The translations under genes were made by a program, and so were the position numbers. DNA of 64,000 nt from Gemmatimonadota bacterium (GTDB taxonomy: Bacteria; Gemmatimonadota; Gemmatimonadetes; Gemmatimonadales; Gemmatimonadaceae). Shown here in pieces: positions 4,833 to 48,301 of this stretch. Within the stretch, counting starts at the first letter, position 1; every line of letters starts with the position of its first letter. The notes beneath the pieces are model-generated. The model was given only the letters and a program-made list of their open reading frames with translations, ran no database searches and was not told the origin of the DNA. The DNA is taken from NCBI GenBank assembly GCA_016874035.1, contig VGVM01000005.1:1-64000 (forward strand), in the 5' to 3' direction.

Positions 4833-4860
4833 CGGGTCAGCGCACGTCAGCACGCAACAC

Positions 4861-4893
4861 AAAGCCCGCCCGGCAACTTGCCGAGCGGGCTTT
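4861..4893. terminator. Bidirectional intrinsic terminator
   Basis: A strong hairpin has AAAGCCCGC on the left arm and GCGGGCTTT on the right, extended by CGGCAA/TTGCCG around a 2-nt loop. The flanking A and T runs give a U-tract for transcripts from either side. It lies between two convergent genes (PEBP and S9 peptidase) and would terminate both. Confidence 0.85.
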
Positions 4894-4916
4894 GTCCGTC
4901 TACCTGTGTCGCGGTA

Positions 4917-18304: not shown

Positions 18305-19540
18305 CTACCGCGGGAAGCCGGCCGTCGGGACGTTCTTCGTGATCCGCTGCGCGTTCTTGTAGTACACCTTCTTCAGCACGTCGTCCGGCAGGTCAATGCC
18401 GTAGAGCTTCCAGAACGCATGGTAGTCGCGGTAGTAATCGAAGTAGTCGTCCTTCGTCTCGAAGACCCGCCAGAAGTACGGGTACTCCTCCGGCTGGAAT
18501 GAATCCTTGCCGAAGAGGATGCGATCCTGGTACTTCACGAAGAAGTCGCGCGCCGCGCGCGGCTGCCGTCCGATGTCGTACAGCACGGCGCCGAGTTCGG
18601 CGTACACGTTCGGCATCGCGTCGAACATCCTGCCGAGTCGCCCGAGGTCGTTCGCGTGCCAGCCCATGTGCGCGGCGACGAACGTGGTCTTCGGGTGGCG
18701 CTTGAACAGGTTGTCGCGCTGCATCATGAGGCTGTCGAACGCCGGGCGGCCTGACCCGGGCCCGTTCCGCCGATCGTTGAACAGCGCGAGCTCGAGCCAG
18801 CGCTCGTTCTTGTTGTCAATCGGTTGGAAGAACTCCTCGGGCTCCGCCGTGTGAATGAACACGGGGATCCCAAGGCGCCCGGCGGCGGTCCACACCGGGT
18901 CGAGTTCGGGATCGTCGATCCGGAGCAGCGAACCGTCGGCCTTTCGCGTCGACAGACCGAATCCCTTGCCGATTTCGCCGATCCCGACTGCGCCGACCGC
19001 GACGTCGGCCTCGAGCTGCGCGACCGCGCGCTCGGCCCAGCCGGGCGAGCCTACGCCCTGAAAACTCACGCCGGTGAAGATCCGGATGCGGTCCTTCATC
19101 GCGGGCGATGCGTTCACGTTCGCCATCAGCGTCTTGAGGCGCTCGCCGGAAATGTTGTCGGTGACGAGCATGACGCCGAGGTTGAGCGCGTCCATGAACC
19201 GCTTGAGCGAGTCGAGCATCTGCGGCGTGCCGAGGAATCCCCCGACGTGCGCGTGGTAGTCGATCGCCGGGAACTTCGCGCGCGGCACCTTCGTTTCAGG
19301 CACGCGCAGCGTGTTCCGCGGCCGATAGTCCACGATGCTTGGCGCCGGGAACTCGGGCGCCATGCAGGTACGCGGACGGATTTCCGTGTTGCCCGGCGGG
19401 CATTCTTCGCCGGGTTGGATGGGTGTGCCGCGTCCGCCTCGCCCGCCACCCTGCATGCCGCCTGCCGGCGGACCCTGCGCTTCCAATGTGCCGCTCATGA
19501 CGAGCGCGCCGATTGCGATTGTCGTGGCTAGCCTGCGCAT
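18305..19540 (-). CDS. Exported amidohydrolase-2 family protein
   Basis: 411 residues. A signal peptide is followed by a Gly-rich segment (GGMQGGGRGGRG) and a small Cys-containing region. The metal-dependent TIM barrel starts with IDYHAHVGG (metal ligands HxH). Further motifs are GIGEIGKGFG, PVFIHTAEPEEF, TFVAAHMGWHAND and ILFGKDSF, the last holding the conserved Asp. The family includes decarboxylases and lactonases; the substrate is not evident. It is the downstream gene of the amidase on the same strand, separated by a 353-bp repeat-rich gap. Confidence 0.75.
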   Translation of the reverse strand: MRRLATTIAIGALVMSGTLEAQGPPAGGMQGGGRGGRGTPIQPGEECPPGNTEIRPRTCMAPEFPAPSIVDYRPRNTLRVPETKVPRAKFPAIDYHAHVGGFLGTPQMLDSLKRFMDALNLGVMLVTDNISGERLKTLMANVNASPAMKDRIRIFTGVSFQGVGSPGWAERAVAQLEADVAVGAVGIGEIGKGFGLSTRKADGSLLRIDDPELDPVWTAAGRLGIPVFIHTAEPEEFFQPIDNKNERWLELALFNDRRNGPGSGRPAFDSLMMQRDNLFKRHPKTTFVAAHMGWHANDLGRLGRMFDAMPNVYAELGAVLYDIGRQPRAARDFFVKYQDRILFGKDSFQPEEYPYFWRVFETKDDYFDYYRDYHAFWKLYGIDLPDDVLKKVYYKNAQRITKNVPTAGFPR

Positions 19541-19658
19541 ACGTTCCTCTCTGGGCCGGACGATAAATCTGCCTGCGGGTGCTTGTACCCGAAAGACTCA
19601 TGTTGGGCTCCCCGGCGCTCGGCAATGCGCCCCAAGCGGGCGCTTGGCACTCCGCTCC

Positions 19659-19702
19659 GGCGAACCAATGGCCGCGATACGGCTGCGGCCAAGAGGTTCG
19701 CC
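19659..19702 (-). repeat. Structured repeat copy 1 (44 nt, REP-like)
   Basis: A nested hairpin: outer stem GGCGAACC/GGTTCGCC, inner stem TGGCCGC/GCGGCCA, with small bulges. Its reverse complement matches copy 2 at about 33 of 44 positions, and both stems keep pairing through compensatory changes. It belongs to a 353-bp gene-free block (19541-19893). The same block also holds a CGGGT/ACCCG hairpin (19576-19591), a CCAAGCG/CGCTTGG palindrome (19632-19647) and a CCTTTGC/GCAAAGG pair (19701-19739). Confidence 0.7.
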
Positions 19703-19762
19703 TTTGCGGAGCGCCAGCGCACCCGCTCAGAGGCAAAGGAGGACGCGAAGGCACGTCGCATA

Positions 19763-19806
19763 GGCGAGCCCCTTGGCGACGGCTTCATCGTCGCCATTGG
19801 CTCGCC
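19763..19806 (+). repeat. Structured repeat copy 2 (44 nt, REP-like), inverted to copy 1
   Basis: A nested hairpin of the same length and layout as copy 1: outer stem GGCGAGCC/GGCTCGCC, inner stem GGCGACG/CGTCGCC. It is inverted relative to copy 1, with 60 bp between the two. Together they resemble a REPIN/BIME-type pair of extragenic palindromes. Confidence 0.7.
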
Positions 19807-19807
19807 G

Positions 19808-19879
19808 GAGCGGCGTGTCGAGCGGCCGACGAGTAGCCGACGAGGGACGAGTCGAGCGGCGTGTCGAGCGGCCGACAAG
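19808..19879. repeat. 26-nt direct repeat (two units)
   Basis: Units at 19808-19833 and 19854-19879 both read GAGCGGCGTGTCGAGCGGCC then GAC and (G/A)AG, differing at one of 26 positions. The 20 bp between them carries related GAGTAGCCGACGAGG-type sequence. The array directly abuts the amidase stop codon. Confidence 0.65.
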
Positions 19880-19893
19880 CGGCCGACGAGAGC

Positions 19894-21693
19894 TTACCGC
19901 AACTCGGGCATCACGCGCTTCCTGGTGACTTGCTCGAACGCGTACGCGAGCTCGATCAACCGCGGCTCGCTGCACGCGCCCCCCGTGAAGCTCACGCCGT
20001 ACGGTGACGGCAGTGCGTTGAACCCTGCGGGGAACGCCGGAGTCGGTGCGTTCGGCACCTTCGCATACGGCACGATCACCGTCGGGTAGCCCGGCCGCGC
20101 GGCGATCGCGGCGCCGCTCGCTCCCGGGAACAGCAGGGCGTCGAGGCGCTCCGTTCGCATCACGGCGTCAATGCCTTCTGCGCCGCCGAGCGCGACGTCC
20201 TTCGCGCGGTCCACCTCGTACTTCGGGCGGTCAGCCACGAGGTCCATCTCATCGGAAATATCGAGCAGCGACTGCCCGAACTTCATCGAGTTGCGCCCCG
20301 CATTGGCGACGTTGAACCAGCGGAGCTCAGACAGCGTCTTGAACGGCGCCGCGCTTCCGAGCGACGCAAGCCACGCGTTGAAGTCGCGCTTCATGCCGTA
20401 GTTGAAGTCGATCGAGCAGCCCGCGTTGCGGCCTTTCCGGCCCTCGACACCGGCGCAGATGTTCCAGAGCAGGATGTTCCGCAGCGTGTCGCCCGTGACC
20501 ACGCTCGGGATGTTCGCCGGGTCCACGACGATCGCGCCCGCCGCCTTGAGCACCGCGATCGCGGAGTCCATCGCGGCGCGCTGCGCCGGGTTCAGTCCGC
20601 CGCGCGGCTGCGTCGTGCCGGGGATCGTGAACGCATCGTAGTAGAACGCGCGCGGAATCCCGATCCGCGCTCCGCGCAGCGCGTCGCGCTTGAGGTACGG
20701 CCGGTAATCTCGGCCCGGAGGAGGCGGGCACTTCGCCGTCGCGGCGTCGTTCGGGTCGGGCGCGGCGCCTTCCATCGCGCCGAGGAACAGCGCGGCGTCC
20801 TCGACGGTGCGCGCCATCGGGCCCGGCGTGTCCTGGTCCGCCGTGATCGGGATGACTCCGTAGCGGCTCACGCGGCCAACCGTCGGCTTGATCCCGACCA
20901 GCATGTTCGCGTTCGACGGACTGAGGATGGACCCGGATGTTTCCGTCCCCGCGTTCGCGGCCCAGAAACTCATCGCCGTGCCCACGCCCGAGCTCGAACC
21001 GCCCGTGCCCATCACCGGGCGCCCATCGTTGAACCCCGGCCGCGGGTCCGGCCGCGGGTCGTACGGGTTCATCCCGAATCCGCGCACGGCGTTGTAGTTG
21101 CCCGGCATCGGCGTCGGGCTGCCCGCGACCCAGTTCGCGAGCTCGGTCAGCGTGGTCTTTGCGATGATGATTGCGCCGGCGTCCTTCAGGTTCTTCGTGA
21201 GCGTCGCCTCGTACGGTGGCGTCAGGTTCGTGAATGCCAGCGCGCCGCCCGTCGTCGGCATGTTTGTCGTGTGGATGTTGTCCTTGAGCGCGACCGGGAT
21301 TCCGTGCATCGGTCCGCGCACGCGGCCCGCTGCGCGCTCGCGGTCGAGTGCATCCGCCTCGGCGAGCGCGGTGGGGCTCACGGCAATCGTGGCATTGAGA
21401 TGCCGTTCGAACCGCGCGATCCGCGCCATGTGCAGCAGCACGAGTTCGCGCGATGTGGTCCGGCCTTCGGCGAGCGCGGCCTGCATCTGCGGGATCGTGG
21501 CCTCGATGACGTCAAACGGGGCCCGCTGGGCTGCCGGCGTGGCCGCCGCGCGACCGGCCTGCACACCGGTTTGCACGCCAGCTTGTGCTTCGGCGACGCC
21601 TGCGCCGATACCTCCCGCGAGGGAAGCAAGCAACGCGAGCGACGCGAGGAACTCGCGCGACGTCGGGTTCGTATTGGACGGGACTTGGCGCAT
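19894..21693 (-). CDS. Exported amidase (amidase signature family)
   Basis: 599 residues from the ATG at 21693, which begins a signal peptide (to about GVAEAQA). The Ser-cisSer-Lys triad is visible: Lys137 in VALKDNIHT, the serine cluster in GTGGSSSG (about 230-236), and the likely nucleophile Ser255 in TETSGSI. Family members hydrolyse amides including aryl amides and amidated peptides; the signal peptide indicates a periplasmic enzyme. Longer upstream reading has no family similarity. It precedes the amidohydrolase in transcription order. Confidence 0.88.
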   Translation of the reverse strand: MRQVPSNTNPTSREFLASLALLASLAGGIGAGVAEAQAGVQTGVQAGRAAATPAAQRAPFDVIEATIPQMQAALAEGRTTSRELVLLHMARIARFERHLNATIAVSPTALAEADALDRERAAGRVRGPMHGIPVALKDNIHTTNMPTTGGALAFTNLTPPYEATLTKNLKDAGAIIIAKTTLTELANWVAGSPTPMPGNYNAVRGFGMNPYDPRPDPRPGFNDGRPVMGTGGSSSGVGTAMSFWAANAGTETSGSILSPSNANMLVGIKPTVGRVSRYGVIPITADQDTPGPMARTVEDAALFLGAMEGAAPDPNDAATAKCPPPPGRDYRPYLKRDALRGARIGIPRAFYYDAFTIPGTTQPRGGLNPAQRAAMDSAIAVLKAAGAIVVDPANIPSVVTGDTLRNILLWNICAGVEGRKGRNAGCSIDFNYGMKRDFNAWLASLGSAAPFKTLSELRWFNVANAGRNSMKFGQSLLDISDEMDLVADRPKYEVDRAKDVALGGAEGIDAVMRTERLDALLFPGASGAAIAARPGYPTVIVPYAKVPNAPTPAFPAGFNALPSPYGVSFTGGACSEPRLIELAYAFEQVTRKRVMPELR

Positions 21694-21817
21694 CGGGATT
21701 CTCCAGGGCGGGCGACGGTACATTCGGAGTCGTACAAACTTGCCGTCATGCAGCCGTCCCCTGCCAGTTCCGTTCACAGTTGGCGGAACCCGGAGTCCCA
21801 CGGGGGTAGAATCCACC

Positions 21818-47641: not shown

Positions 47642-48301
47642 CTAGTTCTGCAGGATGCGGCGGACCACCACGCGTCCGCCGTACTTGAGGTGCGGACAAT
47701 CTCGCGCGAGGCGGAGCGCCGCCTCGCGCGAGCGCGCAAAGACCAGGAAGTACCCGACGAGCTGGGTCGCCTCGCCCAGCTTTTCCTCGACTTCGACCTC
47801 GCCGCTCGAAGCGGTGGCGTAGCGCGCGATCGAGGCCTCGGCCAGCCCGAGCGCCTCACCTCCGACTACGGCGGCATCGGGACCATGATCGCGGGAGGCC
47901 CAGCGGCTGTACTCTGCGGATCGCGCGACCTCGCCAATCGAGTCCGCCGGCTCTTCGCCGCCGTAGAGCATGAGGGCGTACGTCGCGAGCGGAGCTGCGT
48001 TCGCGCCAACGATCGTATCCGAAGTCGCGGTGGTCCCCGAAGGGGCGTTCATGGCCGCAACCGGTTTACCCGGTGCGAGGAATCGGCTCGCGGAATACGA
48101 ACCGGCGACGAATGCGATCGCTCCGACACCGGCCGCAAGGGCCCACGAGGCAACGCTCAGCGTCCCGCGCCAACGCGAACGCAGCAGGCCCTCCTGCCGC
48201 AGCGCGTGAATCGTCGAATCGGCCACAGCCGGCGGTGGATCGATTTCGCGCGGAAGGCGCCGCAGCCAGCCGGCGATCAGGTCATCGTCTTGTTGCGTCA
48301 T
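47642..48301 (-). CDS. Anti-sigma-like membrane protein with C-terminal YCII domain
   Basis: 219 residues. Residues 1-45 are cytosolic and charged, and one transmembrane helix lies at about 46-70. After an Ala/Thr-rich linker, residues 105-217 match the YCII/DGPF fold (ATYALMLYGGEE, VVGGEAL, LVGYFLVFARSREAALRLA, GGRVVVRRI). YCII proteins are often encoded beside ECF sigma factors of the ECF41/42 type. Here the start overlaps the ECF sigma gene stop (ATGA), supporting a regulator pair. No zinc-binding anti-sigma motif is visible. Confidence 0.65.
   Translation of the reverse strand: MTQQDDDLIAGWLRRLPREIDPPPAVADSTIHALRQEGLLRSRWRGTLSVASWALAAGVGAIAFVAGSYSASRFLAPGKPVAAMNAPSGTTATSDTIVGANAAPLATYALMLYGGEEPADSIGEVARSAEYSRWASRDHGPDAAVVGGEALGLAEASIARYATASSGEVEVEEKLGEATQLVGYFLVFARSREAALRLARDCPHLKYGGRVVVRRILQN

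What the first reader, a model, noticed from the sequence alone, without database searches (positions are those of the whole stretch)
19576..19893. Inverted pair of 44-nt structured repeats with compensatory changes (REPIN-like)
Two 44-nt elements at 19659-19702 and 19763-19806 are inverted copies at about 75% identity. Each forms an outer 8-bp and an inner 7-bp stem. Differences in both stems are paired: A-T becomes G-C in the outer stem and two pairs are swapped in the inner one. This argues for selection on structure, not decay. More hairpins and a 26-nt direct repeat fill the rest of the 353-bp gap.
Basis: seen in the sequence. Interest (0 to 1): 0.7.

Follow-up and report, generated by a model that had tools for sequence, protein, structure and literature searches.

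The report
Rare twin-hairpin palindromic insert in Gemmatimonadota
Between two genes lies a roughly 200-base stretch made of two mirrored, deeply folded hairpins; the same unit occurs once more in this genome and single hairpins of the family occur in one relative, so it looks like a small, rare mobile DNA element that resembles known REPIN-type repeats but lacks their enzyme and their abundance.

Summary
Two inverted 44-nt arms (75% identical) are cores of two ~66-nt hairpins, each with three stacked 8-bp stems. The pair forms a ~192-bp palindrome, the strongest local inverted repeat in the window. The genome (3.08 Mb draft, 99.5% complete) holds one other copy of the whole pair (C34, 86% identical, unlinked, same orientation to transcription) and no further convincing arms. 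A relative in the same genus, a Gemmatimonadota MAG (JARIET01), has two single hairpins. No convincing copy turned up in the other 59 genomes scored by covariance model, in 84,980 species genomes by exact pattern, or in viral, phage and plasmid collections. At three of the four loci an orthologous gene junction in a related genome lacks the element. Pairing covaries strongly. REPIN membership fails: no Y1/RAYT transposase in 18 genus genomes, two pairs instead of tens to hundreds, no consistent GTAG or CGTC tag. Best reading: a rare, non-autonomous, MITE/REPIN-like twin-hairpin insertion moved by an unidentified enzyme. Template-switch repair of palindromes or an RNA-level role remain possible, so covariation alone does not prove selection.

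The parts
19637..19828 (.). Whole twin-hairpin element: ~192-bp imperfect palindrome, two hairpin arms in inverted orientation (unit shared with C34:17749-17950)
   Evidence: 84-nt inverted arms; self minus-strand match E 2e-16; 86% identical second copy of window 19629-19829 at C34
19648..19713 (+).
   Evidence: folding z -6.8 on 19645-19716; covariance model 85.6 bits
19752..19817 (-).
   Evidence: folding z -7.4; 88.2 bits
19714..19751 (.). Spacer between the arms; poorly conserved between the two pairs
   Evidence: alignment of the two copies
19808..19890 (.). Two 37-nt direct repeats (19808-19844, 19854-19890; 92%), the first being the foot of arm B plus flank, i.e. a partial duplication of the element's end
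18305..19540 (-). Downstream neighbour gene: amidohydrolase (PF04909)
19894..21816 (-). Upstream neighbour gene: amidase (PF01425); directly adjacent to the amidohydrolase (8 nt gap) in relative G003

Best explanation
It is a rare, non-autonomous, MITE/REPIN-like palindromic insertion. The mobile unit is about 200 bp: two diverged copies (A and B) of a three-stem hairpin, in inverted orientation. Inferred mechanism: an enzyme acting in trans, not identified here, recognises the hairpins, whose constant part is the middle helix GGCGARC...GYTCGCC with its fixed internal loops, and moves the unit into gene junctions. The outer and inner stems only need to pair, so their sequences drift with compensation. 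Shown: anatomy, two unlinked copies of the pair, related hairpins at two other junctions in a sister species, element-free orthologous junctions. Inferred: that movement was enzymatic, and that the hairpin is what is recognised.
For: The whole pair recurs at an unlinked locus, C34:17749-17950, 86% identical, with A and B in the same order relative to the flanking genes; similarity ends near the ends of the palindrome. Two homologous single hairpins lie in G010 = JARIET01, C89 and C172. Empty sites: G003 has amidase and amidohydrolase 8 nt apart against 353; the own genome has the AKR-CBS junction without the element, ~96 nt against ~277 in G010; G008 has the HhH-peptidase junction without it. 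Pairing 93.7% of cells, 10 pairs with changes on both sides, covariation 0.383 against 0.156 shuffled and at most 0.114 slid. The middle helix is invariant in 7 of 8 pairs, outer and inner stems vary. The spacer diverged while arms stayed 88-98% identical.
Against: Only two pairs in 3.08 Mb, so mobility rests on one duplication. No transposase identified (PF01797 absent; other transposases not tested). No target-site duplication noticed by eye. G010 units are single, not paired. The G003 empty site compares proteins 71-76% identical, and the exact insertion edges cannot be fixed. Only six arms underlie the covariation.
Confidence: 0.58

Rival explanations
1. Cis-acting RNA element: hairpins transcribed at the 3' end of the upstream mRNA or ahead of the downstream gene, protecting or processing mRNA as ERIC does in Yersinia.
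For: All four loci lie between two co-directional genes, after a stop and before a start. Both pairs have the same B-then-A order in the direction of transcription. RNA folds are very stable.
Against: Four co-directional junctions out of four is weak evidence. The pair holds the hairpin in both orientations, and G010 singles show the other orientation from arm B to the transcript. Of the few non-Watson-Crick cells the wobble/mismatch split shows no preference for the transcribed strand (own reading of the alignment, n about 5). The gene pairs share no function. No promoter or terminator motif, and no Rfam family reached its gathering score there.
Confidence: 0.15
2. Neutral palindrome dynamics: a GC-rich quasipalindrome kept and perfected by replication template switching, which makes paired changes in one step; no selection, little mobility.
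For: Template switching creates hairpins and fixes compensatory changes (PMC8794818). The direct-repeat foot shows local duplication activity. No pair shows a two-sided change since the two copies separated; the three stem differences are one-sided.
Against: It does not explain two unlinked copies of the pair or homologous hairpins in a sister species. Internal loops persist unpaired in all six arms, which repeated perfecting would erase. The middle helix keeps its sequence.
Confidence: 0.17
3. A true REPIN: RAYT-mobilised REP doublet, now a relic.
For: Inverted doublet, compensatory spacer changes as in REPINs (PMC3116915), intergenic, mid-stem internal loop reminiscent of the conserved bulge in E. 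coli REPs (PMC8266576).
Against: No Y1_Tnp in 18 genus genomes, two pairs only, no consistent GTAG tag, arms of 66 nt or more.
Confidence: 0.06

Closest known systems
REPIN (REP doublet forming a hairpin), Bertels and Rainey 2011, PMC3116915
   Same: Two imperfect palindromes in inverted orientation as one unit; intergenic; compensatory changes on the two sides of the hairpin
   Different: Two copies instead of hundreds; no RAYT; arms are longer, with three stacked stems; constant part lies in the middle helix, not at the unit's ends
GTAG- and CGTC-tagged REPs, Di Nocera et al. 2013, PMC3733652
   Same: Palindromic, dimers in opposite orientation, heterodimers known, CGTC families lack a dedicated transposase
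   Different: No consistent GTAG or CGTC tag; known REPs are 20-40 bp; Gemmatimonas is not mentioned in that paper
ERIC/IRU, NEMIS, YPAL and other bacterial MITE-like repeats, PMC2229807
   Same: Intergenic palindromic non-autonomous units of about 100-200 bp that can fold when transcribed
   Different: No sequence relation sought or found; no TA termini or target-site duplication shown; twin-hairpin layout; copy number of two

Membership tests
REPIN / REP | Two REP palindromes in inverted orientation forming one unit | tested here: met
REPIN / REP | High copy number, intergenic (typically tens to hundreds) | tested here: not met
   Four arms in two pairs in a 99.5% complete draft genome
REPIN / REP | RAYT (Y1 transposase, PF01797) in the genome | tested here: not met
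   0 of 18 genomes of the genus; control positive in E. coli and four others
REPIN / REP | GTAG (or CGTC) tetranucleotide at the foot of the palindrome | tested here: not met
   No consistent tag across the loci
MITE-like element | Short non-coding unit with terminal inverted repeats | tested here: met
   84-nt inverted arms at the ends; overlapping ORF 19583-20086 has no Pfam match
MITE-like element | Copies at unlinked sites and empty orthologous sites | tested here: met
   Two paired copies and two singles; empty junctions in G003, G000 and G008
MITE-like element | Target-site duplication | tested here: inconclusive
   None seen by eye; edges not sharp enough
MITE-like element | Related autonomous element with the same ends | not tested
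   No covariance hit elsewhere in the genome, but transposases other than Y1 were not surveyed
Rfam RNA families | Match at the gathering score | tested here: not met
   Only a tRNA elsewhere in the window; below-threshold hits are miRNA-type long hairpins

The most novel reading that the evidence does not exclude
A new class of low-copy mobile twin hairpin in Gemmatimonadota, recognised by structure (fixed middle helix and internal loops, free outer and inner stems) and moved by an enzyme unrelated to RAYT/Y1 transposases.
Probability: 0.2. Interest if true: 0.6.

Novelty: new member of a known kind. Interest (0 to 1): 0.36.

Why it matters
Small palindromic repeats are well described in Proteobacteria, mostly with a RAYT. 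A small family in Gemmatimonadota with covarying stems but no Y1 transposase would bear on how such repeats spread and persist without that enzyme. The low copy number limits both the reach and the tests.

Tried and rejected
Viral pattern hits (66 contigs) lack the covarying outer stem when read and were taken as chance. A Rhodothermales pattern hit lacks the visible flanking stem and was taken as chance. Weak covariance hits (C7, G010 C72, G003, G008 and others) lie in long open frames and do not keep the architecture. A single Streptomyces plasmid match (E 0.05, gene) and no phage match. miRNA families in the sub-threshold Rfam scan are generic long hairpins. Intrinsic terminator: none found. 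The TerC locus gave no syntenic empty site.

Full report
Observation. They are the cores of two larger hairpins. Arm A (19648-19713, +) and arm B (19752-19817, -) each have three stacked 8-bp stems separated by fixed internal loops: outer stem, 3/3 loop, middle stem GGCGARCC/GGYTCGCC, 2/3 loop, inner stem, 7-nt terminal loop. Folding is far beyond shuffles (z -6.8 and -7.4). The arms extend to 84 nt at 75% complementarity, and the arm-to-arm match is the best local inverted repeat in the window (E 2e-16; next 3e-7). Energy alone is not decisive, because this GC-rich genome has other strong hairpins. Because each arm is itself a near-palindrome, the transcript can fold as two hairpins or as one long A-B duplex with nearly equal energy (-129.2 and -130.6; -123.1 and -123.9 at C34).

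Copies. In the whole genome (3.08 Mb, 191 contigs, 99.5% complete) a DNA search finds one other copy: the whole pair at C34:17749-17950, 86% identical. It lies between a TerC gene and a DUF5916/CBM9 gene. The order relative to transcription is the same in both places: upstream gene stop, B, A, next gene. A covariance model built from six arms finds those four arms at 81-90 bits, two in G010 at 68 and 49 bits, and otherwise only weak matches up to about 30 bits in 61 genomes, mostly inside long open frames. The first look of that tool scores only some candidates, so degenerate copies may be missed. An exact pattern over 179 family genomes recovers the same six plus scattered single matches in six other genomes, which the model did not confirm where those genomes were scored. 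Over 84,980 species genomes the stricter pattern finds the two G010 arms, in contigs of 9,108 and 19,513 bases titled Gemmatimonadota bacterium AMD20m-Sep20, and one chance-like Rhodothermales site. The contig lengths identify G010 with that record, so the window's genome is a Gemmatimonadota of the same genus. Records very near the window may be left out of that collection.

Covariation. In six arms, 93.7% of cells pair, 10 of 24 pairs show changes on both sides, and the covariation score is 0.383 against 0.156 shuffled and at most 0.114 in slid structures. The middle helix keeps its sequence in 7 of 8 pairs; outer and inner stems vary. One G010 inner stem (C172) was aligned by force and pairs less well. 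Between the two pairs B arms differ at 1 of 66 positions and A arms at 8; the differences fall in loops more than in stems (6/36 against 3/96, p = 0.013) and are one-sided in stems. The spacer between the arms diverged much more. So the arms are constrained relative to the spacer. Selection and template-switch repair of palindromes both predict this; the latter is documented (PMC8794818). Persistence of the unpaired internal loops in all six arms speaks against simple perfecting.

Insertion. In G003 the amidase and amidohydrolase genes are 8 nt apart, against 353 in the window. The own genome holds the AKR-CBS junction without the element that G010 carries there, and a shared promoter-side motif (CCGACATCATGTAG / CTGACATTTTGTAG) places the extra ~180-190 nt of G010 just after the AKR stop. 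G008 has the HhH-peptidase junction without the element of G010 C172. These are inferences from synteny at 65-80% protein identity; exact edges and target duplications could not be read.

Mechanism. Best supported is a rare non-autonomous palindromic insertion, moved in trans by an unidentified enzyme that reads the hairpin. The doublet resembles REPINs (PMC3116915) and the mid-stem internal loop recalls the conserved bulge of E. coli REPs (PMC8266576), but membership fails on enzyme, copy number and tag. An RNA-level role as for ERIC (PMC2229807) is possible, since all four loci are junctions of co-directional genes, but the evidence is thin.

Verdict. The main limits are six arms, one genus, and no enzyme.

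Noticed in passing
window 19808-19890: The foot of arm B is partly duplicated as a 37-nt direct repeat with 46-nt spacing, next to the amidase stop; similar CGGCCG-rich feet lie upstream of the C34 copy.
   Followed up: partly
window 4859-4895 and 47701-47732: The only other strong local inverted repeats in the window (self-matches E 3e-7 and 4e-6).
   Followed up: no
L206 10969-11034; L205 561-626; L207 18305-18370: Very strong simple hairpins elsewhere in the genome, terminator-like or intergenic in look, unrelated to this family by covariance score.
   Followed up: no
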